A DNA stretch of 64,000 bases, from IMG/VR virus record IMGVR_UViG_3300010885_038456, positions 1 to 64,000 of that record; one strand, 5' to 3'. Under the pieces are notes generated by a model, which saw only the letters and a list, made by a program, of their open reading frames with translations, did not search any database and was not told the DNA's origin. Both the position numbers and the translations under genes were made by a program. The stretch comes from a virus. This document shows, in pieces, positions 21,908 through 41,969 of this stretch (positions are counted from its first letter, which is position 1; the number at the start of each line of letters is the position of its first letter).

Positions 21908-22114
21908 ATGGCAAAGTATTATTCAGTTACGGTTTCAGTTGAAATCGAAGATGCAAAAGGAAAGATTAAAAAACAAAAAGAAAACTACTTAGTGGATGCA
22001 TTAAGTGTTACGGAAGCAGAAGCAAAGTTAGTGAAGAAATTCGTTAACGAAGCAGTTCAGCTAGAATATGAAGTAGTTAAAGTTTCTGAAACTCGTATAC
22101 TGGAGGTATTCTAA
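21908..22114 (+). CDS. DUF4494-like protein
   Basis: This 68-residue protein has the pattern of DUF4494: a strand ending in KKQKENYLVDALSVTEAEAKL, the LVDALSFTEAE signature of that family in Bacteroidota, followed by strand VQLEYEVVKVSE. The function of the family is unknown. It supports a Bacteroidota host for the phage. The start follows AAAAGGTTATG. Confidence 0.7.
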   Translation: MAKYYSVTVSVEIEDAKGKIKKQKENYLVDALSVTEAEAKLVKKFVNEAVQLEYEVVKVSETRILEVF

Positions 22115-22116
22115 CT

Positions 22117-22368
22117 ATGACAACGGAACTCAAAGAACAGAGAACCGCAGTTCTTAAACGAGTCCCACCTGGAGATAGATGGACATTTGCGAACCCTGCA
22201 AAGGGAACGCAAGTGTTCCAATCTCTTACAGATGCATTGGAAGGGTGGTATCAACTTACAGATGAAACACAATTCTTTATGGATGCCAGAAATGGTATCG
22301 TTGAAACTATCGAAATGGAAGAAGTTGAAAGACCCGTAAAACGTTTTTCTTTATATGGTGAAGAATAA
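22117..22368 (+). CDS. Unknown protein, 83 residues
   Basis: The protein is soluble, with PPGDRWTFANPAKGTQVFQSL at its centre and an acidic C-terminus. I recognise no family. The start is two bases after the preceding stop. Upstream is GGAGG eleven bases before the ATG, one of few Shine-Dalgarno-like runs in the window, probably by chance. Its end overlaps the next gene by 14 bases. Confidence 0.6.
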   Translation: MTTELKEQRTAVLKRVPPGDRWTFANPAKGTQVFQSLTDALEGWYQLTDETQFFMDARNGIVETIEMEEVERPVKRFSLYGEE

Positions 22369-22594
22369 TCTTATAGAATTAATCGAACAATACATTAGTA
22401 GGTATTGTGTAGAGATACAAGAAAACGAAACCGAAGAATATGTTAAGACAAAACTTCGAAGACATTCTATTATAGAAAGATATAAAGTGAAATACTACAT
22501 TCCAGATTGGGATTTAGAATACACCGTAGATGATGATATGATGCGTGAATTATTAATGTTTAGATATAAAATAAAAGACACTAACAAAATATGA
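22355..22594 (+). CDS. Unknown protein, 79 residues
   Basis: A small alpha/beta protein with NLIELIEQYISRYCVEI at the N-terminus and a patch of charged residues in the middle (KTKLRRHSIIERYKVKYYI). It has no membrane helix. It overlaps both neighbours, by 14 bases upstream and 4 downstream, which shows that it is part of the translationally coupled run leading to the cytidylyltransferase. Confidence 0.6.
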   Translation: MVKNNLIELIEQYISRYCVEIQENETEEYVKTKLRRHSIIERYKVKYYIPDWDLEYTVDDDMMRELLMFRYKIKDTNKI

Positions 22595-23025
22595 AATCGA
22601 ATACTCAAACATTAGTTATTGCAAGTGGATATTTCAACCCATTACATATGGGGCATATTGAATATTTAGAACGTAGTAAAGAATTAGGAGATAAGCTGAT
22701 AGTAATAGTGAACTCAGACCACCAAATAAAATTGAAAGGTTCAAAAGAGTTTCAGAATGAGTTGGAACGTTTATTGATAATCAATAGTTTGAGATGTGTA
22801 GATTACGCAGTATTATCAATTGATACCGATAGAAGTGTTAATAAAACGATTGAACTCCTAAAGGAAAAGAATTCGGAGATGGAAACAATTCTATTCGCAA
22901 ATGGTGGAGACCAAACATTGGAAACCATTTTAGAAAGAGAAACTTGCGAAAGATTGGGTATACAATTAGTAGATAGTTTAGGTGAAAAGATACAATCATC
23001 ATCGTGGTTAAAGGATAAGCAATGA
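22591..23025 (+). CDS. Cytidylyltransferase-family nucleotidyltransferase
   Basis: ASGYFNPLHMGHIEYLERSKELGD contains the HxGH nucleotide-binding motif (HMGH) of the cytidylyltransferase fold shared by glycerol-3-phosphate cytidylyltransferase, RfaE and related enzymes. The C-terminal equivalent of the second motif is weak (KIQSSSWL in place of ISST). At 144 residues it matches the single-domain form. It could activate a glycan precursor, for example glycerol phosphate or heptose phosphate, or act in cofactor metabolism. It overlaps the ferredoxin gene by four bases. Confidence 0.82.
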   Translation: MKSNTQTLVIASGYFNPLHMGHIEYLERSKELGDKLIVIVNSDHQIKLKGSKEFQNELERLLIINSLRCVDYAVLSIDTDRSVNKTIELLKEKNSEMETILFANGGDQTLETILERETCERLGIQLVDSLGEKIQSSSWLKDKQ

Positions 23026-23330
23026 CTCATATAATTGGTTCAGCTTGTATAGATTGTGTAGATGGTGGATGTTTAGCAGTTTGTCCAGTAGATTGTATTC
23101 ATGGACCAATTAACCCAACTGGTAAATCAGCTGAGTTGGCAGGTATGAGTGAAGATGAAAAGCGAGGGATGCAGTTATACATAAACCCAAAGACATGTAT
23201 CAATTGTGCAGCATGTATACCAGAATGTCCCGTAGATGCAATATACTCAACAGAAGCAAAAGCCATTGCTAATGGTGAGTTAAACGCAGTTAATGCAAAT
23301 TATGAGTTTTTCGGACTTAAATTTAATTAA
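23022..23330 (+). CDS. Bacterial-type ferredoxin, two clusters (FdxA-like)
   Basis: The 102-residue protein has nine cysteines at 9, 12, 17, 21, 25, 59, 62, 65 and 69. The second set, CINCAACIPECP, is a standard 4Fe-4S motif. The first set, ending in CLAVCPVDC, is the modified pattern of 7Fe ferredoxins, and an insertion separates the halves. It would carry electrons in the host cytoplasm. A flavin-dependent ferredoxin reductase-like enzyme is encoded at 44884 in the same window. It overlaps the cytidylyltransferase gene by four bases. Confidence 0.9.
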   Translation: MTHIIGSACIDCVDGGCLAVCPVDCIHGPINPTGKSAELAGMSEDEKRGMQLYINPKTCINCAACIPECPVDAIYSTEAKAIANGELNAVNANYEFFGLKFN

Positions 23331-23382
23331 AAACTTTTTATATTTATATTTAAAAACAAACAATTATTAAAACAATTAAATT

Positions 23383-23688
23383 ATGGTAACAGGATTATTA
23401 ATTACAGTAGGAGCAATAGTGTTTCTTGCAGTAGGTATTTATTTAGCAATGAAGAGCGATAAAATCGCAGATGCTAACAATAACAATATTCCAGATGTAT
23501 TGGAAACTGCATTTGAGAATTTGAAAGCAGAAGCTGAAGTTGCTGCTAAAACAATTAAAAAAGTAGTTAAGGCGGTAGAAACTGAAGTTGAAGCAGATGT
23601 TAAGAAAGTTGCAGCAGAAGTTAAGAACGTAGAAACTAAAGTTGAAGATACGGTAAAACGTTTGACAAAAAAACCTATTAAGAAGTAG
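23383..23688 (+). CDS. Membrane-anchored amphipathic-helix protein with EF-hand-like loop
   Basis: One N-terminal transmembrane helix (LLITVGAIVFLAVGIYLAM) is followed by a Ca-loop-like DANNNNIPDVLE (positions 1, 3, 5, 9 and 12 as in an EF-hand). After it come about 60 residues of repeating Ala/Lys/Val/Glu 11-residue units, an apolipoprotein- or LEA-like amphipathic helix. It could lie on the inner face of the envelope. A TATATTTATATTT motif sits about 35 bases upstream. Confidence 0.65.
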   Translation: MVTGLLITVGAIVFLAVGIYLAMKSDKIADANNNNIPDVLETAFENLKAEAEVAAKTIKKVVKAVETEVEADVKKVAAEVKNVETKVEDTVKRLTKKPIKK

Positions 23689-23719
23689 GTAGTATTCACA
23701 TTTAATAAATAACTTCCCA

Positions 23720-23854
23720 ATGGCTAAAGGAAAAAAATCAGATTCATCCGGAGTAACCAAAGTTGTATTTGGTAAAAAGGTTAGTGGTAATGCACATAAA
23801 CGTTGGAATAAGCGCGATAAGAGTGAAAGAAACTATCGAGGGCAAGGTAGGTAG
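23720..23854 (+). CDS. Very small basic protein
   Basis: A 44-residue product, rich in Lys, Arg and Gly, with VVFGKKVSGNAHKRWNKR at its centre. It has an in-frame ATG 32 bases after the previous stop and ends 61 bases before the endolysin. The basic composition suggests nucleic-acid contact or packaging with DNA, but no family is recognised. Confidence 0.5.
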   Translation: MAKGKKSDSSGVTKVVFGKKVSGNAHKRWNKRDKSERNYRGQGR

Positions 23855-23915
23855 TTAATCTAATGTGTGTAAAATTGAAGAGGTTATTTATTAAAAAATT
23901 AAAAATTAAAAAAGT

Positions 23916-24785
23916 ATGCTACTAAAAAGAGGTGACAACAACGAAAACGTAAAGCAATTACAAATTAAATTGGGATTAGACCCAATCGGTAATTATGGAC
24001 CAAAAACCGAAGATGCAGTTAAAGCATACCAATCAAAGAACGGATTAACTGCGGATGGTATTGTTGGTGATGGTACTTGGGCTAAGATTATGGGTAACTC
24101 AGTTGAAACTGAAGAAGTAGAAGATGATGATGTAGTAGAAACAACTACTACAACAACTGCAACTACTACAACGAACAACACCGGTATCAATTTGGATAAA
24201 CTTAAAGGACACGTTCCAGATTCAGTTATCGCACAGATTCCAGATACAGCAGCTAAGTTCGAAATTAACACACCACTGCGATTAGCACATTTCTTAGCAC
24301 AATGTGGACACGAAAGTGGTGGATTTAAATTGGTACAAGAAAACCTAAACTATGGTGCTAAAGGTTTGTTAGGATTATTCAAAAAGTATTTCCCAACAGA
24401 AGAGAAAGCATTAGCATACGAACGTAAACCTGAGAAGATTGCCAATTTGATTTATGGTGGTAGAATGGGTAACGGAGATGAAGCAAGTGGTGAAGGTTGG
24501 AAGTTCCATGGCAGAGGATTTATTCAGTTAACTGGTAAAGATAACTACACAGCATTTACCAAATCAATTGGTGAGGATTGTGTATCTAATCCAGATTTAG
24601 TTGCAACTAAGTATCCATTAGCATCAGCAGCGTGGTTCTTCAATAAGAATGGTTTACACAAACTATCCGATGGTGGAGCAAACGAAGCAACTGTGACAGT
24701 AGTTACCAAACGAGTTAATGGCGGAACTATCGGGTTAGAAGACAGGATAAAACATTTTAATGAGTTTTACAAACTCTTATCTTAA
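23916..24785 (+). CDS. Endolysin: peptidoglycan-binding domain plus GH19 muramidase/chitinase-like domain
   Basis: Residues 1-60 form a PG_binding_1 domain (RGDNNENVKQLQIKLGL and DGIVGDGTWAKIM). A Glu- and Thr-rich linker (about 64-88) leads to a GH19-type lysozyme domain with the catalytic glutamate E133 in AQCGHESGGF, and GRGFIQLTGKDNY, the family's substrate-cleft block. It hydrolyses peptidoglycan at lysis. No signal peptide is present, so export relies on a holin; candidates lie immediately downstream and at 31636. The start is preceded by an A-rich stretch. Confidence 0.93.
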   Translation: MLLKRGDNNENVKQLQIKLGLDPIGNYGPKTEDAVKAYQSKNGLTADGIVGDGTWAKIMGNSVETEEVEDDDVVETTTTTTATTTTNNTGINLDKLKGHVPDSVIAQIPDTAAKFEINTPLRLAHFLAQCGHESGGFKLVQENLNYGAKGLLGLFKKYFPTEEKALAYERKPEKIANLIYGGRMGNGDEASGEGWKFHGRGFIQLTGKDNYTAFTKSIGEDCVSNPDLVATKYPLASAAWFFNKNGLHKLSDGGANEATVTVVTKRVNGGTIGLEDRIKHFNEFYKLLS

Positions 24786-24789
24786 TAAA

Positions 24790-24975
24790 ATGAAAGAATT
24801 GTTATTTGGTACATTTAAGATTTTGTTAGTAACAACTATAATAGGGTTAGCATTATCATACGCAACTCAATTATTAGATTCAGTACGTGATTTGAATTTC
24901 TTAGAAGCAGTTGGAGTATATTGTTTATGGATTCCGATACATGAGATGATAACTACGATGGGTAAAGGAAAGTAA
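24790..24975 (+). CDS. Small membrane protein, holin candidate
   Basis: I start at ATG 24790, four bases after the endolysin stop, giving 61 residues; an upstream start would overlap the endolysin. Two hydrophobic segments (FGTFKILLVTTIIGLALSYA and AVGVYCLWIPIHEMI) suggest two transmembrane helices. Placement directly behind the endolysin and before a terminator fits a holin or antiholin. Sequence alone does not separate these. Confidence 0.6.
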   Translation: MKELLFGTFKILLVTTIIGLALSYATQLLDSVRDLNFLEAVGVYCLWIPIHEMITTMGKGK

Positions 24976-25010
24976 TTCATTACGATAATACGATTTTTTT
25001 GAAGTAAATT

Positions 25011-25042
25011 AATGGGGAGGTAACACTTCCCATTATTTTTTG
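25011..25042 (+). terminator. Rho-independent terminator after the lysis genes
   Basis: An 8-base-pair stem (AATGGGGA against TTCCCATT, one G-T pair) with an 8-base loop is followed by ATTTTTT. It closes the transcription unit that contains the endolysin. Confidence 0.85.
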
Positions 25043-25102
25043 CTTAAAAACAGAATATTTCAATCATTTTTTATATATATATAAGTAATAAAAAATGGTA
25101 GT

Positions 25103-25663
25103 ATGATAGATAAACTTATAGAATTAAAGCAAAGTATAGGTAGAAGAATTATTCAATCTACCACATTACGCATAATTGTACTTACTGTAATTGCATTATT
25201 GTTGCAACTATGTACAACACGTCTATATGGAGCAACTCCCAGTGGTACTGTATTCGTAGAGAGTGTGACAAACCGAGTAGTTATCGGTAAATTAGCAGGA
25301 AACAGAAAATTAGAATTCGGTGTCAAAAATATCTTAGAAGAGTATTTACAAGACAGCGGGTATGATATATCTCCATCAGCACAGAATAAGATTAAGGTGG
25401 ACATAGTTTATTTAGATGTTCTAACTACAAAAAAGAATATCTCCGTCTTCCACAAAAATGAGGAAGAAGTTGTTATCAGACTTAAAGGTACACTTTATAA
25501 GGATGGCAAAAAGGATAAAGAGGTTATGGTTGAAGAATCTTCATCAGAAATCTCGATATCAACTTTGATAGTAGATGAGGGTGGTAAGTTCAACCAAACT
25601 TCGTTGAGTAATGCACTCAAAAAAGGTTGCGATAAACTTATAACCAAACTACTACCAAAGTAA
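25103..25663 (+). CDS. Membrane-anchored CsgG/LPP20-like protein
   Basis: The 186-residue protein has a hydrophobic helix at about 21-38 (LRIIVLTVIALLLQLCT) after a basic N-terminus, then a mixed domain ending in FNQTSLSNALKKGCDKLITKLLP. This end is like the FNQSSISTATKKALDVACANIL end of the protein at 31971, so the two are paralogs. The fold is reminiscent of CsgG-type outer-membrane or periplasmic proteins in which a C-terminal helix closes the domain. It heads the envelope operon and its stop is one base before the next start. Confidence 0.6.
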   Translation: MIDKLIELKQSIGRRIIQSTTLRIIVLTVIALLLQLCTTRLYGATPSGTVFVESVTNRVVIGKLAGNRKLEFGVKNILEEYLQDSGYDISPSAQNKIKVDIVYLDVLTTKKNISVFHKNEEEVVIRLKGTLYKDGKKDKEVMVEESSSEISISTLIVDEGGKFNQTSLSNALKKGCDKLITKLLPK

Positions 25664-25664
25664 T

Positions 25665-27320
25665 ATGAGAAAACTACTAGCTTTTATTGGAATAATATTA
25701 CTATCCGCATTTACTACAAATGCGCAACTGACTGTAAACCAGTCAATAGTAACAAAATCGTCTTACAAAGTAGGCGATACTATACAAGTCAAATATACCG
25801 TCAATCGTGGTTCAACTACTCCACGTTATTTTTGGTTACGATACCAATACAATAATAAAGCATTGACATATGTATCTACAACTTGGTCACAAGGTACTTC
25901 CGTACAAACTTACTACACAGGTTGGAATAACTACAAATTCACAGAGAACTCATCCGCTGATGCAACTAGTTTGTATGGACAATATCAATCATCGAATTGG
26001 GCATATACTGCAAATTCAGATTGGAATGTTGGGCAATTAACCGTACAACGAACAGATGCTTCGATTGATGGTGATATTGCAACTCAAAAATACATACTTA
26101 AAGATTTAGTGGATTATACTGATATTCATAAGTTAGATTTATCTTATGCAGTTAATACCGCTTCCACAAACATTTCACCAATCACTACTACAACTGGTAA
26201 AGTATCATTAGGCACTGTTACGGGTGCTACTTCGCAATTCAAAGTAAGAGTATTATATCCATCTGGATACACAATCGCAGACCATAGTATACAATTAATG
26301 CCATTACTATCGGATGGTGTTAGTATAAATTCAGCAGGAACACCTATTGCAACTAAAGCATTGGATTCGAATGGTGAAGTCACATTTACAACTGAAGTTA
26401 AAGTAGGGGATATATTTGGTGTAATGGTAACACCAGCATCTCAGAAGAGTTGGATGGATAATGTAGTAACTGTTGCAGATGCTTATAAAGCATTCTTAGG
26501 TGTTACGAGTGTTGGATTGGATGGTACTTCTAATTACTTTACATATCCTGTCAGAGACCAAAGAATTGGTAATGTATCAAAAGATGATGGAACGGGTACT
26601 AGTACATTTAACGAAACCGATGCGTACTATTTATTCTCTTATATAATGGGCATTGATATGAGTTCCAAAGCATATATACCAACCTCAACTGCTACTTCAT
26701 TCCGTTTTGAAAGCGCATTGTTAAATCAGAATTGGATTGATGGTACTAATAAAAACAAAGTAACGATAACTGCGCCTGTTCAAACCGTTAATATGGTATA
26801 TGCATGGGCTGGTGATTTGGATTATTCACATTCATCTTCTCCAACAGAAATTGCAAGTAGAATTACATCTGGTAATGTTTCAACTGGAATGAATACAATT
26901 ACATATCTAAAGAGTTCAGCAATCACAACGATGTCATACACACCACCGGTATTGGAGAATGTTAAATTAAGTGTGGCTTCTAAGTTAGAAAATGGTAAAG
27001 TGATATTAACTACAACATTGACAAGAGCTGATTTAGCAGGGTTGGAAGTGATTATGAACTATGATAATGCAAAATTGACATTAGATAATGTTTTATTTGA
27101 TTCTGGTAATACGATAACAAACTTTTCAACACACGAAAATGGTAGATTAACATTTGGTTCTATTGACCAATTGAAATCGGCAAGAATTAAAGTAGGAACA
27201 CCATACACATTGATATTCACACCAAAAACTACCTTAACAAATACTGCTGGATTATTCTACTTTATATTATCAGACGCTATCGATTCGACCGGAAAGAAAG
27301 TTAATTTGATTGTGGAATAA
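25665..27320 (+). CDS. Secreted protein with dockerin-like and cohesin-like domains
   Basis: This 551-residue protein has an N-terminal signal peptide (LLAFIGIILLSAFTTNAQ) cut after TNA. A beta-sandwich (about 22-170) is followed by a second Ig-like part. Near residues 270-335 lies a dockerin-like segment, VADAYKAFLGV followed by TFNETDAYYLFSYIMG. The last 120 residues (LENVKLSVASKLENGKV to the end) read as a cohesin-like beta-sandwich. It shares this order with the next gene. It should be exported through Sec to the periplasm or surface. The stop overlaps the next ATG by one base. Confidence 0.68.
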   Translation: MRKLLAFIGIILLSAFTTNAQLTVNQSIVTKSSYKVGDTIQVKYTVNRGSTTPRYFWLRYQYNNKALTYVSTTWSQGTSVQTYYTGWNNYKFTENSSADATSLYGQYQSSNWAYTANSDWNVGQLTVQRTDASIDGDIATQKYILKDLVDYTDIHKLDLSYAVNTASTNISPITTTTGKVSLGTVTGATSQFKVRVLYPSGYTIADHSIQLMPLLSDGVSINSAGTPIATKALDSNGEVTFTTEVKVGDIFGVMVTPASQKSWMDNVVTVADAYKAFLGVTSVGLDGTSNYFTYPVRDQRIGNVSKDDGTGTSTFNETDAYYLFSYIMGIDMSSKAYIPTSTATSFRFESALLNQNWIDGTNKNKVTITAPVQTVNMVYAWAGDLDYSHSSSPTEIASRITSGNVSTGMNTITYLKSSAITTMSYTPPVLENVKLSVASKLENGKVILTTTLTRADLAGLEVIMNYDNAKLTLDNVLFDSGNTITNFSTHENGRLTFGSIDQLKSARIKVGTPYTLIFTPKTTLTNTAGLFYFILSDAIDSTGKKVNLIVE

Positions 27321-29632
27321 TGAGGAATATTTTCGTTACACTATTGTTGTTGGTATGTTCGTTCATATCATATGGGCAAACGGTTACTGCTCCAGACTCT
27401 AAATCATTCTTACAAAGTACATCTGGACAAGATGCTAGTGGGTTTGCGTTGAATGGGTTTAATGCTACCGATGTTCTATTTGCATCAATTAGTTTAGTAT
27501 CACCACCAACCGGAACAACGTTTACCGTATCAACTACAACGGGATTAACTTACTCAAGTGGATATACTACTTGGAGTAATATAACACGTATATCTTTCAC
27601 CGGAACTCAATCGGATATCAACAACGCATTGGCATCTCTGAAGATAAACACAAGTACAACGAAAGGTAATGTGGTTATATCGGTAGCGGCGTGTGTTAAT
27701 CCAACTGGGTATTACTTTAATGGTGTGAATGGGCACTTTTACAAACCCGTAACAACTGGTACAACCTATACGAATGCAAGGGCATTATCATTATTAACTA
27801 CATTCAAAGGACAGACGGGATATTTAGTAACAATTACATCTTCTCAGGAAGATTTATTCATTCAAGCCAATGTTCCACAAACTAATATATGGTTTGCAGC
27901 AACGGATGAAGTAAAAGATGGTACATGGGTAATTGATGCAGGACCTGAAAAAGGAACTATTATGAAAACTGCAAATGGACCAACTGCTGGAAATATAGTC
28001 GGAGTTTATAACAACTGGGCAAATGGTGAACCAAATGGTGCAAATCATAGTGAGGATTACGCAGTAACAAAATGGAATGGTAATAAGTGGAATGATTTAT
28101 CTAACAATTGGAGTAACCCATATGTAATTGAGTATGGAACTTGGAGTAACCCAGATGATCAAACCTTTACTGATTTCTTTTCAAATAGTGTATCTAATAC
28201 AAATGGTGATGTATTGGCAGCTAAGTTCAACTTTAACTTTGGTGGTAATGTAGATGAAACAAAATTCTCATCAAAAGCATATACCTATATTAATAGTGCA
28301 TGGAACACAACCACAACAACACAGACCCGAACGTTGAGTGGATTGGGTAAAGTGGATATAAGTAATGATGTTGATACTGCAAAAGTTAATAGTGGTACAT
28401 ATAAGGCAACGATATCTAATGGCAATGTAGAGTGGTCTTATTGTGAACCTAATTCATTTGGAAACGGGTATAGTAGATTACTAATCGATATGAGGCAATT
28501 TACTACTACAACACCGAGTTCAGTATCATCTGTAAACCTAATGGGAATATACAATGGTAGTGTAGAGTATCTAACAGCAGACCCTAATGGTTGGGCTGAG
28601 TATCGAGTTCCATCGGATTTAGCAGGTGTAACAACGAGTACAAACGCCAGTATCAGAAATGCTGGATATGGTGGATGGGCATTTGCTTGTAATGTATCAT
28701 TTGGTGTTAGTAATGTATACAAACAACATGGAATTGAATTAACTGCAAACAATCAAACAGAACTAAATACATTATACAATAGTATAGTAACGGTATCCGA
28801 TGTATATTTGGCATTTAAAGAATTGGCAAATATTGGTATACTCGGAAACGAAAGTGGAAAAGAGTTCACATCGGGTATTCAATATATGAACGCAGATGTG
28901 GATGATAATGGCGTATTTAATGAAGCGGATTGTTTTAAATTATTACAACATCTTACCGGAGTACAATCCCTAACACAATCCACTTCGCTAACGTATCTGA
29001 TGAAACTGATTGATAAAACACAATACGATGCCGTTACTAAAACAAATTGGAATGTAGCTAGAACGGGAACAGACTTTAGTAATTTGACACGAAACCTGTA
29101 TCCATTTAGTTTAAATACAGGTGCACTTAACAATACATATAATATAGATGTAACTTGGAAGGGTGATGTAAATCTATCACACTCAGCATTACAATCTGGC
29201 ACAAATGGGGCAAGTGGTAAAAGTTTGAATACACTATTATTAAAATCTACAAGTTCACTAAACCAAATACAATCGGCAATCGTAACCGAATTGAGTGATG
29301 GTAAGGTATATGCATATATAAATGTAGACCCATTACAAGAAGAAGTAGTTGGTACTCAATTCCAATTAAACTACGATAATACTGTATTAAAATTTGAGAA
29401 GGTAGATTTCACTACAAAAGGAAATCCAACCAATTACGGAACTAATAGAGGTGATTATGTGAACGTTGGCTCATTAGTAAGTGATGGCAGTACCACATTG
29501 GATAATGCAACTGAATATAAAATCACATTTACACCAATAAAACCCATCAGTAATACATTGGGGTTAATATCTATTGGAGCAACTGATGCAGTTAGTAAAA
29601 GTGGATTACAATTAAATGTTAAGGTAAACTAA
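27320..29632 (+). CDS. Secreted protein: adhesin repeat, C-type lectin, dockerin-like and cohesin-like domains
   Basis: The 770-residue protein has a signal peptide (TLLLLVCSFISYGQ). Residues 30-125 resemble adhesin repeats (GTQSDINNALASL). Residues about 130-275 are a C-type lectin domain: ALSLLTTFKGQTGYLVTI, then WANGEPNG with SEDYA and NKWNDL, the WxxGEPN and WND hallmarks. Around 500-550 is a dockerin-like Ca loop (NADVDDNGVFNEADCFKLL). The C-terminal 110 residues are cohesin-like (VVGTQFQLNYDNTVLKFEKV). Lectin plus cohesin in one phage protein suggests glycan binding and self-association at the host surface. Confidence 0.72.
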   Translation: MRNIFVTLLLLVCSFISYGQTVTAPDSKSFLQSTSGQDASGFALNGFNATDVLFASISLVSPPTGTTFTVSTTTGLTYSSGYTTWSNITRISFTGTQSDINNALASLKINTSTTKGNVVISVAACVNPTGYYFNGVNGHFYKPVTTGTTYTNARALSLLTTFKGQTGYLVTITSSQEDLFIQANVPQTNIWFAATDEVKDGTWVIDAGPEKGTIMKTANGPTAGNIVGVYNNWANGEPNGANHSEDYAVTKWNGNKWNDLSNNWSNPYVIEYGTWSNPDDQTFTDFFSNSVSNTNGDVLAAKFNFNFGGNVDETKFSSKAYTYINSAWNTTTTTQTRTLSGLGKVDISNDVDTAKVNSGTYKATISNGNVEWSYCEPNSFGNGYSRLLIDMRQFTTTTPSSVSSVNLMGIYNGSVEYLTADPNGWAEYRVPSDLAGVTTSTNASIRNAGYGGWAFACNVSFGVSNVYKQHGIELTANNQTELNTLYNSIVTVSDVYLAFKELANIGILGNESGKEFTSGIQYMNADVDDNGVFNEADCFKLLQHLTGVQSLTQSTSLTYLMKLIDKTQYDAVTKTNWNVARTGTDFSNLTRNLYPFSLNTGALNNTYNIDVTWKGDVNLSHSALQSGTNGASGKSLNTLLLKSTSSLNQIQSAIVTELSDGKVYAYINVDPLQEEVVGTQFQLNYDNTVLKFEKVDFTTKGNPTNYGTNRGDYVNVGSLVSDGSTTLDNATEYKITFTPIKPISNTLGLISIGATDAVSKSGLQLNVKVN

Positions 29633-30525
29633 TGAAAAAACTAATAATAATTCTGTCACTAATTTCGATAACATTTGTGACAAACGCACAGTTACAGCAA
29701 CCTGATACATTACAATTATCACCAAAAGAACAATTTGATTTCAGTTCTAAGTGGAGTAATGTAGGAACAATGCAATCATACATAGATTTTCAAAAAGACG
29801 TGCTCTCATCATCAAACCTTTCAATTGGTATAGTTGGAAAGGCAATAACATCGACTTTGAATTTGGGATACAACAAATCATCTCAGAATGGTAAATGGGA
29901 ACATATATTTTCAACATCAATAAATCCAAAATGGAAATATTATGGATTTGGATATGGGTTTGCTAAGAATACAGATAAAAGAATCTCAACAATTCAGGCA
30001 TACTATTCAACTGACTTTGATTTTCAAAAAGATGTTTCATTATCAATTATAGATGTATTCAAAACAAAGAAGTTTGGTTCTTTTGGGTATAGTTTAATGG
30101 TAGAAAAAACATTTTGGGGAGAATATGAAGGTGAATGGCAAGGAAAATACACAGTCGATGTAAATGGAAATTGGGTTAAGAATATATATCCAATCAACCC
30201 ACCATCATCTCAATTAATATATAGATGTATGCTAATGTACACTTATACATTCAAAACACATTTGGTTAATATTTCACCACAAATATTTGGTATGAGTGAT
30301 TTTTATACTGTTTTTAAAAATGGAGGGACTAGTGATTATTCATATAAAAATGATTTCAATTTGGACTTATATTATGCTATATCTATGGATTGGAAAATAA
30401 CTAAAAAATTCATTCTAAATACAAATATCAGATTTAATAAAACATTTGATAAATTTGGTGAATCGGTTGGGTTTAAGAAAGTTAACCCAATAGTTTTTGC
30501 AATAGGAACAAACTTCAAATTTTAA
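29632..30525 (+). CDS. Outer-membrane beta-barrel protein
   Basis: A signal peptide (IIILSLISITFVTNAQ) leads into 275 residues dominated by alternating hydrophobic and polar strands with aromatic ends (WKYYGFGYGFAK, FGSFGYSLMVEKTF). The protein ends in AIGTNFKF, with the terminal Phe required by the BAM machinery. It is related by eye to the C-terminal half of the protein at 33599 (shared SPQIFGM and SPQVFTM). It is cotranscribed with the lectin/cohesin genes and overlaps both neighbours by one base (TAATG), so it may anchor or export that assembly. Confidence 0.78.
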   Translation: MKKLIIILSLISITFVTNAQLQQPDTLQLSPKEQFDFSSKWSNVGTMQSYIDFQKDVLSSSNLSIGIVGKAITSTLNLGYNKSSQNGKWEHIFSTSINPKWKYYGFGYGFAKNTDKRISTIQAYYSTDFDFQKDVSLSIIDVFKTKKFGSFGYSLMVEKTFWGEYEGEWQGKYTVDVNGNWVKNIYPINPPSSQLIYRCMLMYTYTFKTHLVNISPQIFGMSDFYTVFKNGGTSDYSYKNDFNLDLYYAISMDWKITKKFILNTNIRFNKTFDKFGESVGFKKVNPIVFAIGTNFKF

Positions 30526-30863
30526 TGAAAAAACTATTATTCATATTATTAGTATTGGCATCTTGTAAGAAGATGGACATACCTAAACCTATTATACCCA
30601 TAGCTGACATTTTTAGTGTTAGCCAAAGTAGTGTAATGGATGGACAGGATATTCATTTCAATCTGCAAACCGCAGGTATTTATACACTAACATTGATAAA
30701 TAAAACAAACAATCAAGTAGTTTCGAGAGAACGATTTACTGGTAAAGTTGGAGAAAATGCATTAAAACTTTATACAAACACATTATCGGTAAAAACTTTA
30801 TATTTATTGCTAGAAAATAATAGTAAAGTTCAAATAGGAAAAACAATTGTAATAACTAACTAA
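30525..30863 (+). CDS. Lipoprotein with type IX sorting-domain-like fold
   Basis: The SPII signal (LFILLVLASC) gives a lipidated Cys at residue 14, followed by KKMD. The rest is a small beta-sandwich: YTLTLINKTNNQVVSRERF, then GENALKLYTNTL and KVQIGKTIVI. This is the strand order of the type A C-terminal sorting domain of the type IX secretion system. It is carried on a lipoprotein rather than at the end of a large cargo. It overlaps the barrel gene by one base. The domain match is by eye. Confidence 0.62.
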   Translation: MKKLLFILLVLASCKKMDIPKPIIPIADIFSVSQSSVMDGQDIHFNLQTAGIYTLTLINKTNNQVVSRERFTGKVGENALKLYTNTLSVKTLYLLLENNSKVQIGKTIVITN

Positions 30864-30874
30864 ACTAAATAAAA

Positions 30875-31237
30875 ATGAAAAACGTATTTTTAATATTACT
30901 AATATCTATCATAATGGTAGGGTGCAGTAAAGATAATTTTGCACCAACAAACTCAAATTCCAATCTGAATATGACTACACCGGTAGGTATTAAGTTGGAA
31001 ACGCCATTTGTAACCTCTGGAGTTGCAATGAATGTGAAAGCTTCTGAAGCTGGAGTAGTTACTATTAAAATGTTTGACATTGCTAATAGAGTAATATCAA
31101 AAGAAGAGATACATATTAACGTAGGAGATAATATCCTAAATGTATATACAACAATACTTCCATCATCGGCATACCGAATTGGAATATATAATTCAGTTGG
31201 TAATGAGTTGGGAATAACAGATTTTAACAAACTATAA
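30875..31237 (+). CDS. Lipoprotein, paralog of the preceding one
   Basis: The SPII signal (FLILLISIIMVGC) places a lipid on Cys 17. After a short Asn/Ser linker the 85-residue beta-sandwich shows VVTIKMFDIANRVISKEEI and GDNILNVYTTIL, matching the preceding lipoprotein strand for strand. Both therefore belong to one family of sorting-domain-like lipoproteins. It is the penultimate member of the envelope operon. Confidence 0.62.
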   Translation: MKNVFLILLISIIMVGCSKDNFAPTNSNSNLNMTTPVGIKLETPFVTSGVAMNVKASEAGVVTIKMFDIANRVISKEEIHINVGDNILNVYTTILPSSAYRIGIYNSVGNELGITDFNKL

Positions 31238-31248
31238 ATTAAATTATT

Positions 31249-31596
31249 ATGGCAAAGGCAAAGAAAGAGCAAACGCCGGATGAGGCAATGGCTAAAAATG
31301 AAAAACACAACGATGGTACTGTAAGTGGGTTAAAGAAAACCATTATCGGTACAGTTGGTACGTTGGTAACCGCAGGTGGTGCGTTTTTAATGACTTATGT
31401 GAATACACCTAAGAACAATGATAAACCTGTACAACCACAAAGTATTAATATCAACATGCCAGCTCCTGCACCTGCTGCAGAAACTAAAACTATAATCATC
31501 AAAGAAAAAAGTGGTGAGACCGGAGCAACCGGAGCAACTACACCAGTTAAGAAAAAAGACGGTGATGAATTTAAGAAGAAAGAACCATTGTGGTAA
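31249..31596 (+). CDS. Membrane protein with short collagen-like tail
   Basis: The 115-residue product has a Lys/Glu-rich cytoplasmic N-terminus, one transmembrane helix (GTVGTLVTAGGAFLMTYV) and a Pro/Ala-rich segment with GETGATGATTP, a short collagen-like run. A basic C-terminal tail follows. It may be a tether in the envelope. It starts 12 bases after the second lipoprotein. Confidence 0.58.
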   Translation: MAKAKKEQTPDEAMAKNEKHNDGTVSGLKKTIIGTVGTLVTAGGAFLMTYVNTPKNNDKPVQPQSININMPAPAPAAETKTIIIKEKSGETGATGATTPVKKKDGDEFKKKEPLW

Positions 31597-31635
31597 TTTA
31601 ATACAATCAGTAAAAACAATCTAAAACAAATTATT

Positions 31636-31920
31636 ATGGGAAAAAGAGAAAAAGATTTATCATTTAAAGAATGGATAGTTGATATCTTTAAAGATGAACG
31701 TGGTGCAATATCGGTAAAACCAGTTATTGCATTTGTAGGAGCAATGTTCTTATGTATAACTATGGTTGCGAATAGCTACTCTGCAAAGGATATAGCACCA
31801 TCTGATAAATTAGTTGATGCGGTAATGATTATTACTGCAATCGGAATGGGAGCAGATACTTTAGACAAGTTTACTTCTAAGAAAGCAGAAGAACCTAAAA
31901 AAGAAGAAGAGTTAGGATAA
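31636..31920 (+). CDS. Holin-like protein, two transmembrane helices
   Basis: This 94-residue protein has two helices, VIAFVGAMFLCITMVANSY and VDAVMIITAIGMGADTLDKF, separated by a short Asp/Pro loop, with charged termini (KEEELG end). The layout and the GADTLDKF-type ending match small holins of phages of Bacteroidota as I recall them. It is followed by a terminator. It lies 7 kb from the endolysin, so its role as the main holin is uncertain. Confidence 0.68.
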   Translation: MGKREKDLSFKEWIVDIFKDERGAISVKPVIAFVGAMFLCITMVANSYSAKDIAPSDKLVDAVMIITAIGMGADTLDKFTSKKAEEPKKEEELG

Positions 31921-31927
31921 CATTAAG

Positions 31928-31959
31928 AGGGAAGAACCATAAAACTTCCCTTTTTTTTT
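31928..31959 (+). terminator. Rho-independent terminator of the envelope operon
   Basis: AGGGAAG pairs with CTTCCCT around a 10-base loop and runs into nine T residues. It closes the unit that starts at 25103. Confidence 0.88.
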
Positions 31960-31970
31960 AAATAAAAGAT

Positions 31971-32690
31971 ATGAAAAACTTATTAGTATTATTAGGTATG
32001 TTATTGATTGGGACTACCACTATGGCGCAAACCATTGGAACAACCAAAACAGAAGATTTCAAAGCAAGTTTTGAAAAGAAAAGAGATATCTCACAATATA
32101 TGGATTATGAAGGACCTAAAAAGAATATTCAAATCCTAAAATGTGGTATTGGTGATGAGGTATATGATATGTATCCAGAACTTAAAGAGAAGCGAGTAGG
32201 ATTGGGTGTTGCAAATATCGTATTAGAATATTTGGATAACCTTAATAGATTTGAATTTACCGAAGACAAAACAGAAATAAAGAACAGGATGATTACCCAG
32301 TACAAAGCATCAGCAGCAGGTATTTCCGAAAACAAATTGGATGGTAGAGGAAAGATTAAGTTGGCACACTACTTTGTAGAGGTAGAATGTTATGACTACT
32401 CTGTTAGTGAAGATGAAACAATTAATTTGAAAAATGGTATTAAGGATGATTTAACTACAAGAATTGGGTTGCAAGTTAGATTTACAAATTCTGAAAACGG
32501 AACAATTATAGCAGCATCTGGATTAGGAGAAGCAAGAACAAAAAGAGAACTAACTTTAATGAGTGATGCATCAGTAGACCCTATTAAGTTCAATCAGTCA
32601 TCTATAAGTACAGCAACTAAAAAAGCATTAGATGTGGCGTGTGCTAACATTTTAGATAAGATGATTAAGAAAAAAATATTTGAAAAATAA
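31971..32690 (+). CDS. Secreted CsgG/LPP20-like protein
   Basis: This protein has 239 residues. The signal peptide (LLVLLGMLLIGTTTMAQ) is typical. The mature part shows an N-terminal alpha/beta region (MDYEGPKKNIQILKCGIG) and YFVEVECYDYSVSED, with a C-terminal helix FNQSSISTATKKALDVACANILDKMI. The layout is like CsgG, an outer-membrane assembly protein. The C-terminal helix is shared with the gene at 25103. Both may be parts of one assembly. The previous gene ends in a terminator, so this one needs its own promoter. Confidence 0.6.
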   Translation: MKNLLVLLGMLLIGTTTMAQTIGTTKTEDFKASFEKKRDISQYMDYEGPKKNIQILKCGIGDEVYDMYPELKEKRVGLGVANIVLEYLDNLNRFEFTEDKTEIKNRMITQYKASAAGISENKLDGRGKIKLAHYFVEVECYDYSVSEDETINLKNGIKDDLTTRIGLQVRFTNSENGTIIAASGLGEARTKRELTLMSDASVDPIKFNQSSISTATKKALDVACANILDKMIKKKIFEK

Positions 32691-32722
32691 GTAAAAAACA
32701 GAATAGTGTGATATTTATATGT

Positions 32723-33385
32723 ATGAAGAATACATATATTTATATTAAAGAAAGTCCATTAGGCCTCAAGTATTTAGGAAAGACCGTATCCGACCCATAT
32801 CAATATAAGGGTAGTGGCAAAAAATGGAAGTTCCATCTTAAAAAACATAATATAACAGCAAATCAAATTAAAACAACTATATTATGTGAAACAAATAATT
32901 ACGATAAACTAAAAGAATTAGGATTGTATTATTCAAATTTTTATGATATAGTCAATTCATCTAATTGGGCAAATTTGAAACCTGAAGAAGGTGATGGTGG
33001 TGCTACTAGAAACGGTATGAAGCATTCATCCGAAACCAAAAAATTAATGAGTGAACAAAAAATTGGAGATAATAATCCAATGAAAAGACCTGAAATGAGA
33101 AAATTGATGAGTGAGATTGGAAAAAACAGAATACACAGTAATGAAAGTAATAAAAAAAGAAGTGAAGCATTGAAGGGAAAGAAAAGACCTTTAGATGTTG
33201 TAGAAAAAATAAAAAAAGGATTAACGGGCAAAAAGTTATCAGAAGAACACAAACAATCATTAAAAGGAAAACGAAATCCATATGGAGAGCAACCTAAAAT
33301 AAAATGTATTTATTGTGGATTAGAAGGTGGTAAAAACTCAATAAACAGGTGGCACAATGACAAATGTAAAAATAGAGTAATTTAA
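32723..33385 (+). CDS. GIY-YIG homing-type endonuclease with NUMOD repeats
   Basis: I start at ATG 32723, where the product begins with TYIYIKESPLGLKYLGKT, the GIY-YIG strand pair (YIY and YLG). The 220-residue protein continues with repeated KxMSEQKIG and SNKKRSEALKGK segments of the NUMOD3 type, and a CIYCG zinc-like end. Such enzymes cut DNA site-specifically and spread like the T4 Seg proteins. It sits next to a short, apparently cut gene at 33416, which could mark its insertion site. Confidence 0.85.
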   Translation: MKNTYIYIKESPLGLKYLGKTVSDPYQYKGSGKKWKFHLKKHNITANQIKTTILCETNNYDKLKELGLYYSNFYDIVNSSNWANLKPEEGDGGATRNGMKHSSETKKLMSEQKIGDNNPMKRPEMRKLMSEIGKNRIHSNESNKKRSEALKGKKRPLDVVEKIKKGLTGKKLSEEHKQSLKGKRNPYGEQPKIKCIYCGLEGGKNSINRWHNDKCKNRVI

Positions 33386-33415
33386 TAACTTGTTGATATT
33401 TAAAAAATAAATAAG

Positions 33416-33496
33416 ATGATAAAACTGACTAATATACTAAACGAAGACCTTAGAAAGTGGTTTGGTAAAGGTGGTACTTGGAAAACATGTAAATAA
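33416..33496 (+). CDS. Short ORF, probably a truncated gene remnant
   Basis: The 26-residue product MIKLTNILNEDLRKWFGKGG ends six residues later at a stop. Its first ten residues match the start of the protein at 38892. DLRKWFGKG resembles the start of longer proteins in marine phages, so a frameshift or loss may have cut the gene behind the homing endonuclease. A functional small peptide is possible but less likely. No continuation is recognisable in the next 100 bases. Confidence 0.4.
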   Translation: MIKLTNILNEDLRKWFGKGGTWKTCK

Positions 33497-33598
33497 ATAA
33501 TAAACTTTAGATTATCGATTAAACAATAGTTACAAACCAAAAAATCGTTACTGCAATAATTCGTTACAGCCAATTAATTAACGGCAATACGATAGTAG

Positions 33599-35131
33599 AT
33601 GAAAAGATGGTTAGTATATGTGATAATATCGGTTATATTATTTATTTCGCATAAAGCGAAAGGACAAACCTATACCCAAACGTTTGTTGACAGATGTACT
33701 GGTGAAACCAAATTAGCAGTAACTACCTATATAAATGGTAATGCAGTAGTTTCGTTTTACAATCAAATCAGAACATTCACACCAATTGAAGTTCAGAGTG
33801 GAGCATTGCAAGCTTGGTTGATAACAACTAAGGTAACATATGAAGCAATGACTTGTCCAACTGCTACCGTCATAACAAATGTAATATCAACTACCATATC
33901 TCAAACCGTTGCAAATACAGCAACGGCTGCAGCAGCTTCGGCAGCGGCAGCGGCAGCATCAGCAGCTGCATCTGCTGCATCTTCTGCTGCGAGTAGTTCG
34001 GCATCTTCTGCTGCGAGTAGTTCGGCATCGGCAGCTGCAAGTGCAGCGGTATCAGTTCCAACTCCAACAATGGCGCCACCACCACCAACACCAACTGCAA
34101 CACCACCACCTGCTCCGGCAGCAGCACCAGCTCCTGCACCTACCGAAAGTAAACCAGCAAGTGCAGCACCTGCTCCCGCTGAAAGTAAGAGTGAACCGAA
34201 ACCTGCTGAGAGTAAAACAGAAGCCAAAACCGAATCAAAGGAAGAAGCTAAAACCGAATCCAAAACCGAATCAAAGGAAGAAGCTAAATCGGAAAGTAAA
34301 TCTGAATCAAAGGAAGAAGCTAAATCGGAAGAAAAGAAATCAGAATCTAAATCAGAAGAAAAGAAATCAGAATCTAAATCTGAACAAAAGAAAGAACAGA
34401 AGAAGGAAGAAGCCAAAAAGAAAGAAGAAGAGAAGAAGAAAAAGGAAGAGGAACGGAAGAAGAAAGAACAACAACGTGCATTGAATCCAATGTTGCTAGC
34501 ATCCGACTTAACTGCTTCGCAAGGTGCTGATGGTAAATATACTGAATCCATAACCATTGGTGTTAGTAAATCTTCTATGATGGGAGATAAGAGTTGGAGT
34601 GGAACATCTATGATATACAGTAACCTTACTCAGTTTGTATTGGCAGGTGGATATACGAAGATGATGTTCAAAGATGGTGGGTTAAACGCAATACACTCAT
34701 ACTCAACAGCTGAGGCTTATTTACAAGGTAATTATATGAACTTAGTTGGATATACATATATCAAACCAAATCCAAAATATGGGACGTATGGGTACAATGT
34801 GGGGGTTATAAATCTATTCCTAAAGGATGGTACTAAATTTAACTATAATATGTCCTCATCTATCGTAGCATTTTGGACAAAACCATATCCGTATAGTAGG
34901 AAGTTAGTTATATCACCACAGGTATTCACAATGTTCTCACCCGTAGCATGGAATACGGTAAGTGGTGTTACTACGATAAATACGAATATGGGATATATGT
35001 TGGGGGCATCGTTTGATTATAAGATAAGTAAGAGATTCGGATTCAGTTTTAACTATAAGTTTAGTGGTTCTACTCAGAAGGGTATACCAATATTGAATAA
35101 CTTTTTAATAGGTAGTAGAGTGATACTTTAA
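33599..35131 (+). CDS. Outer-membrane beta-barrel with long low-complexity N-terminal arm
   Basis: The 510-residue protein has a signal peptide (YVIISVILFISHKAKGQ), a folded N-terminal part up to about residue 95, an Ala/Ser-rich stretch (about 104-150), a Pro-rich stretch (about 152-180) and a Lys/Glu/Ser repeat region (about 180-300). The last 210 residues form a beta-barrel with TyrxGly strands. Its C-terminal half is related to the barrel at 29632. The low-complexity arm could span the periplasm as in TonB. It ends in RVIL, not Phe, which is less typical for BAM substrates. Confidence 0.72.
   Translation: MKRWLVYVIISVILFISHKAKGQTYTQTFVDRCTGETKLAVTTYINGNAVVSFYNQIRTFTPIEVQSGALQAWLITTKVTYEAMTCPTATVITNVISTTISQTVANTATAAAASAAAAAASAAASAASSAASSSASSAASSSASAAASAAVSVPTPTMAPPPPTPTATPPPAPAAAPAPAPTESKPASAAPAPAESKSEPKPAESKTEAKTESKEEAKTESKTESKEEAKSESKSESKEEAKSEEKKSESKSEEKKSESKSEQKKEQKKEEAKKKEEEKKKKEEERKKKEQQRALNPMLLASDLTASQGADGKYTESITIGVSKSSMMGDKSWSGTSMIYSNLTQFVLAGGYTKMMFKDGGLNAIHSYSTAEAYLQGNYMNLVGYTYIKPNPKYGTYGYNVGVINLFLKDGTKFNYNMSSSIVAFWTKPYPYSRKLVISPQVFTMFSPVAWNTVSGVTTINTNMGYMLGASFDYKISKRFGFSFNYKFSGSTQKGIPILNNFLIGSRVIL
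33978..34028 (+). repeat. Direct repeat, 24-base period, within the barrel gene
   Basis: A 24-base unit that starts with CATCTTCTGCTGCGAGTAG and ends in TTCGG occurs twice in tandem and encodes Ser/Ala octapeptides. It probably arose by slippage or unequal recombination, and it marks the Ala/Ser-rich arm as a likely length-variable region. A second repeated block encoding Glu/Lys/Ser lies around 34225-34385. Confidence 0.75.
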
Positions 35132-35180
35132 TTGAAAAATATATACTTATACCTATACTAATTTAAACAGATATTTATTT

Positions 35181-35828
35181 ATGAAAAGAGTTTTTTTATC
35201 AATTGTTATGGTTCTATGGTTATCTGTAACATCACTTATCGCACAAGATTTGGTTACAATTAAGCACACAAACTATACAACCACATTTTCCAAATCAAAG
35301 AAATACCCAGTAGAAGTAGAATGGTGGATTACGAAAGCAAAGATTGCATGTACTAAACCATTGGCTAGAAAAGATAATTTTAAACCAGACCCACAATTAG
35401 TAGCAGAAACAAACATTGCGGCTGATTACGTTGGAAGTGGAACGGATAGAGGACACAATATGCCAGCAGCAGAGAATCTATGCCAGACACCTGCTGTGCA
35501 AGATGAGTGTTTTTACTTTACAAATATGACTCCCCAGTATCATTCACTCAACGCTGGAGATTGGAAATCCGTAGAGGTGTTGGAAAGACAATTAGCAAAC
35601 GAAAACGATTCTGTACATGTATGGTGTGGTTCAGTTGGAATTGCAAAAGTATTGGGAGCAAATAAGGTAGCAGTTCCTACACAATGTTGGAAAGTAATTT
35701 ACATTGTAAAGAGCAAAGAATGGAAAGCATATATATTCAATAACACAACAGATAAACCAACTGGTATACCATCCCACATTGTACCCGTTGCAAATGTAGA
35801 AAAATTAACAGGGTTTAAATTCAAATAA
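35181..35828 (+). CDS. Secreted DNA/RNA non-specific endonuclease (NucA/DRGH type)
   Basis: After a signal peptide (IVMVLWLSVTSLIAQ), this 215-residue protein has the DRGH motif at 89-92 with catalytic H92, FYFTNMTPQYHSLNAGDW with the metal-binding N124, and the expected strand order of the DNA/RNA non-specific endonuclease family. These Mg-dependent enzymes degrade nucleic acid in the periplasm or outside the cell. It could destroy competing DNA at the cell surface or clear released host DNA at lysis. The start is preceded by the TATTTATTTATG context. Confidence 0.9.
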   Translation: MKRVFLSIVMVLWLSVTSLIAQDLVTIKHTNYTTTFSKSKKYPVEVEWWITKAKIACTKPLARKDNFKPDPQLVAETNIAADYVGSGTDRGHNMPAAENLCQTPAVQDECFYFTNMTPQYHSLNAGDWKSVEVLERQLANENDSVHVWCGSVGIAKVLGANKVAVPTQCWKVIYIVKSKEWKAYIFNNTTDKPTGIPSHIVPVANVEKLTGFKFK

Positions 35829-35829
35829 T

Positions 35830-36048
35830 ATGATGCTACAACTCAACCCAATGATTCCGATTGTAAGAGTAAGTGACAAGATGAAAGGATATGTGTTCAT
35901 GGTGATTGATTATTCACAAGAACATGATATCCTTTTTACTTGCGCAATGGATAATGGTGAGATTTGGACATTACCAAATAAAGAGATTCGGTTTAATAAA
36001 AACATATCATTAGACCGGAAAGTAATTAGTTATAAGAATCCAAGCTAA
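35830..36048 (+). CDS. Unknown protein, 72 residues
   Basis: A small soluble protein with an SH3-like pattern of strands (IVRVSDKMKGYVFMVIDYS, then ILFTCAMDNGEIWTLPNKEI). It begins one base after the nuclease stop. No family is recognised; the pattern suits a small adaptor. It is followed by the AdoMet-decarboxylase-like gene after a short gap. Confidence 0.55.
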   Translation: MMLQLNPMIPIVRVSDKMKGYVFMVIDYSQEHDILFTCAMDNGEIWTLPNKEIRFNKNISLDRKVISYKNPS

Positions 36049-41584: not shown

Positions 41585-41655
41585 GCGGTGGAAGTGTTAC
41601 GGTAGCACAACAGACTTCCAGTTTGAAAGAGAATGTTCAATTCATTCCCACCGCT
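41585..41655 (+). tRNA. tRNA-Gly (UCC), copy 1
   Basis: This 71-base RNA folds as a tRNA: acceptor GCGGTGG with CCACCGC, D arm GTGT with GCAC and a GG-containing loop, anticodon loop CTTCCAG giving UCC, T stem GAATG with CATTC and T loop TTCAATT. U73 fits glycine. Four pairs of the anticodon stem form; the first position is A-A. CCA is not encoded. The most canonical of the three. Confidence 0.82.
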
Positions 41656-41673
41656 CTTTAATTTAATTACCTC

Positions 41674-41741
41674 GCGGGTTAAGTGTTACGGTAGCACAGA
41701 AACATTCCAGTTTCAGGAGAGATTCGACTTCTCAACCCGCT
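41674..41741 (+). tRNA. tRNA-Gly (UCC)-like, copy 2, unusual geometry
   Basis: This 68-base RNA has acceptor GCGGGTT with AACCCGC, the same D arm as copy 1, a 5-bp anticodon stem GAAAC with GTTTC around a six-base loop (ATTCCA), and a T stem of only 4 bp (GAGA with TCTC) around TTCGACT. U73 is present. The anticodon reads UCC if the six-base loop lacks position 38. Whether it is charged or functional is uncertain. Confidence 0.62.
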
Positions 41742-41780
41742 CACTTAGTTATGGTTCTAATAAGTAAAAACCAACATATT

Positions 41781-41849
41781 GCGGTATAAGTGTTATGGTA
41801 GCATAATGTACTTCCAGTACAAAGGAGCTGTTCAATTCAGCATACCGCT
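41781..41849 (+). tRNA. tRNA-Gly (UCC)-like, copy 3, short T stem
   Basis: This 69-base RNA has acceptor GCGGTAT with ATACCGC, a D arm like the others, anticodon loop CTTCCAG (UCC), and a 4-bp T stem GCTG with CAGC around TTCAATT. U73 is present. The first position of the anticodon stem is A-A as in copy 1. Its acceptor stem differs from the other copies with compensating changes, which shows selection for structure. Confidence 0.66.
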
Positions 41850-41873
41850 CATTCTCTTAGGAGAAACAGAATC

Positions 41874-41926: not shown

Positions 41927-41969
41927 TAAAACTAAACTAAAATTAAAAAAAGTGGGTTATCCGATTTTA

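What the first reader, a model, noticed from the sequence alone, without database searches (positions are those of the whole stretch)
25665..29632. Two secreted phage proteins each joining dockerin-like and cohesin-like modules
Both large proteins carry a signal peptide, an internal segment of dockerin type (for example NADVDDNGVFNEADCFKLL) and a C-terminal cohesin-like sandwich. Having the two complementary modules in each chain would let them assemble head-to-tail into filaments or sheets on the host surface, fed by calcium. Such phage-encoded cellulosome-like scaffolding would be new.
Basis: partly seen in the sequence, partly recalled or inferred. Interest (0 to 1): 0.8.

Follow-up and report, generated by a model that had tools for sequence, protein, structure and literature searches.

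The report
Phage-encoded lectin display on host surface
Hundreds of large viruses of Bacteroidota bacteria carry a conserved gene cassette that appears to build a sugar-binding protein assembly on the infected cell, using the cohesin and dockerin connector parts otherwise known from bacterial cellulose-degrading machines; the parts are well supported, the function is inferred.

Summary
COH1 (25665-27320) and LEC (27320-29632) are adjacent secreted proteins of a large Bacteroidota phage. Both end in a genuine cohesin fold (Foldseek E about 1e-7 to 1e-6), and COH1 also has a cohesin-like N-terminus. Only LEC has an intact dockerin calcium loop (116 of 121 homologues, against 0 of 122 for COH1), so symmetric head-to-tail filaments are not supported.

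The pair is adjacent in all 124 loci that hold both, inside an outer-envelope cassette found in hundreds of viral contigs and in one isolated phage (Flavobacterium phage immuto). In immuto-type cassettes the cohesin protein ends in a type IX secretion sorting domain (16 of 16 fused representatives match), which points to the cell surface; the dockerin protein carries interchangeable heads (C-type lectin, PA14, laminin-G). Best reading: a phage-encoded lectin display system on the infected host, probably for adhesion. The window's own proteins lack the sorting domain, so their export route is open, and function is untested.

The parts
25010..25035 (+). terminator-like hairpin (10-pair stem, then TTTTTT) separating the cassette from the endolysin gene side
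   Evidence: a consensus match only (6 found, 6.1 expected in shuffles), but the longest stem and directly before the cassette
25103..25663 (+). 'CsgGa': exported envelope protein, YajG/TraT-like (Lipoprotein_16)
   Evidence: Pfam Lipoprotein_16 in 19 of 29 homologues, best 1.2e-5; TraT in 7 of 29, best 5e-4; present in 96 of 101 window-type loci
25665..27320 (+). COH1, 551 aa secreted protein: cohesin - beta domain - degenerate dockerin - cohesin
25728..26099 (+). COH1 N-terminal cohesin-like domain (residues 22-145)
   Evidence: Pfam Cohesin 28-82, Cohesin in 24 of 66 homologues, best 2.5e-5; beta-rich in the model
26448..26654 (+). COH1 dockerin-like helical segment (residues 262-330) without a calcium loop
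   Evidence: profile match to the LEC dockerin, probability 97.7%; 0 of 122 homologues keep the loop
26952..27317 (+). COH1 C-terminal cohesin-like domain (residues 430-551)
   Evidence: homologous to the LEC cohesin, probability 99%; nine strands in the model
27320..29632 (+). LEC, 770 aa secreted protein: beta domain - C-type lectin - beta domain - dockerin - cohesin
27725..28141 (+). C-type lectin domain (residues 136-274); EPN 237-239, WND 257-259
   Evidence: Pfam Lectin_C 1.2e-6; Foldseek CEL-I 4.8e-6; EPN and WND in 167 of 167
28772..28966 (+). LEC dockerin (residues 485-549); intact calcium loop DVDDNGVFNEAD at 28895-28930
29282..29629 (+). LEC C-terminal cohesin (residues 655-770)
   Evidence: Foldseek 2jh2 6.7e-7; Pfam Cohesin in 27 of 54 homologues
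29632..30525 (+). secreted protein that looks like an outer-membrane barrel (OMP), present in about half of window-type cassettes
   Evidence: 51 of 101 loci; barrel inferred from sequence, no family match
30525..30863 (+). lp1, small lipoprotein
   Evidence: lipobox-like start; paralogue of lp2, probability 99%; 100 of 101 loci
30875..31237 (+). lp2, small lipoprotein; weak resemblance to a T9SS sorting domain
   Evidence: profile probability 67% to the phage sorting domains; 99 of 101 loci
31249..31596 (+). tm, single-span membrane protein with a Pro/Ala/Lys-rich tail
   Evidence: 97 of 101 window-type and 58 of 58 immuto-type loci
31636..31920 (+). small membrane protein, holin-like by topology
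   Evidence: alignment; role inferred
31971..32690 (+). 'CsgGb', the most conserved secreted protein of the cassette; distant resemblance to CsgG not significant
   Evidence: about 51% identical in immuto phages; profile against CsgG probability 14%
33599..35131 (+). BARR: signal peptide, low-complexity linker, C-terminal part that looks like a barrel
   Evidence: repeats at 34213-34408

Best explanation
This is a phage-encoded lectin display system. The phage makes a secreted cohesin protein (COH1) and a secreted lectin (LEC); the lectin's dockerin docks into a cohesin, so that a calcium-dependent, mannose-type sugar-binding head stands out from the envelope of the infected cell, held by accompanying outer-membrane proteins and lipoproteins. 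In immuto-type cassettes the cohesin protein is sent to the surface by the host's own type IX secretion system. The likely benefit is adhesion: sticking the infected cell and its lysate to glycans of neighbouring cells or particles, so that progeny meet new hosts. Shown by computation: the domains, their homology, the conserved cassette, the sorting domain in immuto-type cassettes, and the exchange of heads. Inferred: the docking, the surface location in window-type phages, the ligand, and the benefit.
For: Cohesin folds in both chains and homology between their C-terminal modules. Dockerin calcium loop in 116 of 121 LEC homologues, shuffles 3.7%. C-type lectin in 111 of 121 LEC homologues, EPN and WND in 167 of 167 lectin-bearing proteins. 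COH1 and LEC adjacent in 124 of 124 loci holding both. Immuto gp15: Cohesin 5.9e-9 and T9SS type A sorting domain TIGR04183 9.3e-12, both above cut-off. 16 of 16 fused immuto-type representatives match the sorting domain, 14 the cohesin, 9 the dockerin. 284 of 295 genomes of the same class match the immuto-type anchor profile; nearly all listed matches fall on its sorting-domain end. Best viral fold match of LEC is a phage protein named for that sorting domain, 1.7e-13. Heads swap while the dockerin stays: C-type lectin, PA14, laminin-G, GEVED, Ig, with a PA14-like head in both cassette types.
Against: COH1 and LEC of the window have no recognised sorting domain, so surface location there is by analogy. 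No cohesin-dockerin complex was modelled. The LEC dockerin has one intact calcium loop of the usual two. The lectin could bind the host's own glycans, which fits receptor masking as well. Genes near an endolysin also fit an envelope or lysis role.
Confidence: 0.5

Rival explanations
1. Receptor masking: the lectin coat binds the infected cell's own surface glycans and blocks adsorption of other phages (superinfection exclusion).
For: EPN-type lectin motifs always conserved; CsgGa has a weak match to TraT, known from general knowledge as a surface-exclusion protein.
Against: Endolysin-side gene order hints at late expression; heads swap between unrelated fold types, more like changing external targets. 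Neither excludes it.
Confidence: 0.22
2. One reading: COH1 and LEC polymerise head to tail into filaments or sheets through calcium-dependent cohesin-dockerin contacts.
For: LEC has both a dockerin with an intact loop and a cohesin; COH1 has two cohesin-like domains.
Against: COH1 lacks the calcium loop in 122 of 122 homologues, so the chains are not equivalent. LEC alone could still self-assemble.
Confidence: 0.13
3. The modules are used as generic sandwich and EF-hand-like stalk parts and do not bind one another; the proteins are ordinary secreted adhesins.
For: Degenerate dockerin in COH1; single-loop dockerin in LEC.
Against: Strict pairing of cohesin and dockerin proteins in the cassette, also in split and fused forms.
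Confidence: 0.25
4. The cassette acts in lysis or outer-membrane disruption, with COH1 and LEC staying in the periplasm.
For: Endolysin in or beside the cassette in 38 of 58 immuto-type and 23 of 101 window-type loci of at least 14 kb; a holin-like protein inside; a paper proposes a lysis role for phage CsgGF pores (PMC9004378).
Against: Lectin and adhesin heads and a surface-sorting domain have no clear use in lysis.
Confidence: 0.15
5. The proteins end up on the virion, attached after lysis.
For: Lectin-like domains on phage particles are known in general (recalled, not tested).
Against: Sec signal peptides and T9SS sorting domains send proteins out of the cytoplasm where virions assemble.
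Confidence: 0.08

Closest known systems
Flavobacterium phage vB_FspM_immuto gp13-gp19 (NC_055915)
   Same: Same cassette logic: C-type lectin plus dockerin loop (gp13), dockerin protein (gp14), cohesin (gp15), tm (gp16), CsgGb about 51% identical (gp17), BARR (gp18), CsgGa-like (gp19)
   Different: gp15 carries a T9SS sorting domain; the window proteins instead end in cohesins and add lp1, lp2 and OMP
Cellulosomal and non-cellulosomal cohesin-dockerin modules
   Same: Cohesin fold; type I dockerin calcium loop in LEC
   Different: Phage-encoded, lectin cargo instead of enzymes, one intact calcium loop instead of two
Phage-encoded T9SS cargo of Cryophage (PMC7468147)
   Same: T9SS type A sorting domains in phage genes
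   Different: Cryophage cargo are an endoglucanase, a GH39 enzyme and a PA14 protein; the paper text has no cohesin, dockerin or lectin
Curli pore genes of pelagimyophages and phage Melnitz (PMC7029224, PMC9004378)
   Same: Phage-encoded outer-envelope genes; the 'sibling capture' idea proposed there resembles the adhesion reading
   Different: Those carry recognised CsgG and CsgF; the resemblance of CsgGb to CsgG is not significant here
Phage-encoded adhesins on the host surface such as PblA/PblB of a streptococcal phage (from memory)
   Same: Phage genes that give the host surface a binding property
   Different: Unrelated proteins, Gram-positive host; not compared here

Membership tests
Cohesin (PF00963) | nine-stranded cohesin sandwich | tested here: met
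   Foldseek 6.7e-7 and 4e-7; nine strands in both C-terminal domains
Cohesin (PF00963) | score above Pfam gathering cut-off | tested here: not met
   COH1 19.2 bits against 24.1; no Cohesin hit listed for LEC itself; met by the relative immuto gp15, 36.7 bits. Filed by fold, not by profile score
Type I dockerin (PF00404) | two calcium loop-helix repeats | tested here: not met
   LEC: one intact loop, first loop degenerate; COH1: none
Type I dockerin (PF00404) | binds a cohesin | not testable with these tools
   no complex prediction available
C-type lectin (PF00059) | fold and profile above cut-off | tested here: met
   29.6 bits against 22.6; CEL-I match
C-type lectin (PF00059) | EPN or QPD and WND sugar and calcium motifs | tested here: met
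   EPN and WND in 167 of 167
T9SS type A substrate (TIGR04183) | C-terminal sorting domain, window proteins | tested here: not met
   no hit for COH1 or LEC; cohesin C-termini unlike sorting domains
T9SS type A substrate (TIGR04183) | C-terminal sorting domain, immuto-type relatives | tested here: met
   gp15 44.8 bits against 23; 16 of 16 fused anchors match at E 0.01 or better
Curli secretion channel (CsgG) | profile homology of CsgGb | tested here: inconclusive
   hhalign probability 14%, colinear but not significant; no Pfam CsgG hit
Cellulosome scaffoldin | cohesins recruiting dockerin-borne carbohydrate-active enzymes | tested here: not met
   no catalytic domain convincingly matched in COH1, LEC or relatives

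The most novel reading that the evidence does not exclude
Large Bacteroidota phages build a modular, calcium-dependent lectin coat on infected cells, anchored through cohesin-dockerin contacts and in part through the host's type IX secretion system, with exchangeable sugar-binding heads that set which cells or particles the infected cell sticks to.
Probability: 0.4. Interest if true: 0.88.

Novelty: new variant of a known kind. Interest (0 to 1): 0.72.

Why it matters
If true, viruses borrow the host's surface-sorting route and a connector chemistry known from cellulosomes to re-dress the infected cell. It would explain an envelope cassette shared by hundreds of large phages, give a testable form of the proposed 'sibling capture' strategy, and offer a natural set of exchangeable lectin heads. 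One isolated phage with a cultured host makes it testable now.

Tried and rejected
Symmetric filament model: weakened, because COH1 has no calcium loop. CsgG homology of CsgGb and CsgGa: not significant. T9SS sorting domain in the window proteins: none found. Diversity-generating retroelement acting on the lectin: no reverse-transcriptase motif found in longer frames of the window, no template-like repeat in 22000-36000, and the lectin domain is among the best conserved parts. Cellular relatives: the scan of genome contigs with the COH1 profile found none, the CsgGb profile found only one metagenome-bin contig of 254 kb. PDB sequence searches with COH1, CsgGa and CsgGb profiles gave nothing useful. 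Promoter-like sites were fewer than in shuffles. Literature for phage cohesin-dockerin systems: nothing found in the held library.

Full report
What is there. The window lies in a virus record of 67,422 bases. At 25665-27320 and 27320-29632 are two genes, here COH1 (551 aa) and LEC (770 aa), each with a signal peptide by sequence. Neither has a clear relative among sequenced phage isolates except the lectin part of LEC in Flavobacterium phage immuto, but viral contigs hold many: 15 found with COH1, 127 with LEC (80 kept), on contigs up to 335 kb.

Domains. Pfam finds a C-type lectin domain in LEC at 1.2e-6 and a weak cohesin in COH1. Across homologues Pfam finds Cohesin in 24 of 66 COH1 members (best 2.5e-5) and in 27 of 54 LEC members (best 9.2e-6), Lectin_C in 49 of 54 and Dockerin_1 in 19 of 54 LEC members. 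The COH1 model is confident (mean pLDDT 87.7) and its best PDB fold matches are cohesins. The LEC model is moderate (78.6); by fold LEC matches cohesins at 6.7e-7 and the C-type lectin CEL-I at 4.8e-6. The C-terminal modules of the two proteins are homologous: cohesin 99%, dockerin segment 97.7%.

The dockerin question. In LEC the second loop keeps D, D or N, N or D and D at the calcium positions; the canonical pattern occurs in 116 of 121 homologues against 3.7% of shuffled sequences. In COH1 it occurs in 0 of 122. The chains are therefore not equivalent, which weakens symmetric head-to-tail filaments and favours a lectin that docks onto a cohesin protein.

The cassette. COH1 and LEC lie next to each other in all 124 loci that hold both. 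Around them stand the same genes in largely the same order: CsgGa, COH1, LEC, sometimes OMP, lp1, lp2, tm, a holin-like protein, CsgGb and BARR. Signal peptides and lipoprotein-type starts make it an envelope cassette. CsgGb scans returned 583 and 113 relatives in viral contigs and one contig in a collection of 84,980 species genomes. These counts include redundant contigs and truncated loci.

The immuto branch. In phage immuto, gp13 is a C-type lectin with a dockerin loop, gp15 is a cohesin (5.9e-9) followed by a T9SS type A sorting domain (9.3e-12), both above curated cut-offs, and gp16 to gp19 match the rest of the cassette. In many contigs gp14 and gp15 are fused into one anchor of about 630 aa; 16 of 16 representatives match the sorting domain, 14 the cohesin and 9 the dockerin. 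Genomes of the same bacterial class match this profile in 284 of 295 cases; nearly all listed matches fall on the sorting-domain end, and only the bin holding the phage-like contig matches full length. The window proteins lack this domain. The viral fold library links LEC to a phage protein named for that sorting domain (1.7e-13) and to proteins of 243 and 363 aa, the lengths of gp15 and gp14.

Swappable heads. The dockerin-bearing proteins carry a C-type lectin in 111 of 121 LEC-type and 56 of 68 gp13-type proteins; others carry PA14, laminin-G, GEVED or Ig-type domains. A PA14-like head occurs in both branches. Exchange of binding heads on a constant connector suggests that the target varies while the mounting stays.

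How it probably works. Inference: the proteins are exported, LEC docks by its calcium-loaded dockerin into a cohesin, and the lectin faces outward. In the immuto branch host T9SS would carry the anchor to the surface; in the window branch the route is unknown, and lp1 and lp2, present in 100 and 99 of 101 loci and weakly like sorting domains (about 67%), are candidates for a part in it. Adhesion to glycans of other cells or particles is the benefit I consider most likely; receptor masking is the main rival.

Relation to known work. Phage-encoded T9SS cargo has been reported in one of the papers read (PMC7468147), and phage curli pores with a 'sibling capture' proposal or a lysis proposal in two others (PMC7029224, PMC9004378). 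No paper on phage cohesin-dockerin assembly was found in the held library, which lacks most subscription journals. Whether CsgGb is a CsgG relative is unproven; the label is a working name only.

Noticed in passing
window 53037-54653: phage-encoded GroEL-type chaperonin (phrog_5725, 1.7e-180)
   Followed up: no
window 23916-24785: endolysin (phrog_181, 4.2e-70) with peptidoglycan-binding and GH19 parts, just upstream of the cassette
   Followed up: partly
window 32708-33385: protein that reads like a GIY-YIG or NUMOD-type homing endonuclease, inserted between CsgGb and BARR; not tested by profile
   Followed up: no
window 57968-60016 and 62383-63600: proteins matching phage families annotated as cobalamin and porphyrin biosynthesis (1.5e-7 and 2.9e-29); possibly a CobT/CobS-like pair
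   Followed up: no
window 2109-4766: two neighbouring glycosyltransferases (phrog_2170)
   Followed up: no
window 41585-42147: three tRNA genes, two tRNA-Gly (TCC) and one tRNA-Asp
   Followed up: no
window 22591-23330: small nucleotidyltransferase-like and ferredoxin-like genes, read from sequence only; relatives lie in 15 and 10 of the loci of the first survey
   Followed up: no
L110, L112, L116, L118 and others: third cassette type: single cohesin protein of 570-710 aa ending in IKLTGYNNF, without lp1, lp2 or sorting domain
   Followed up: partly
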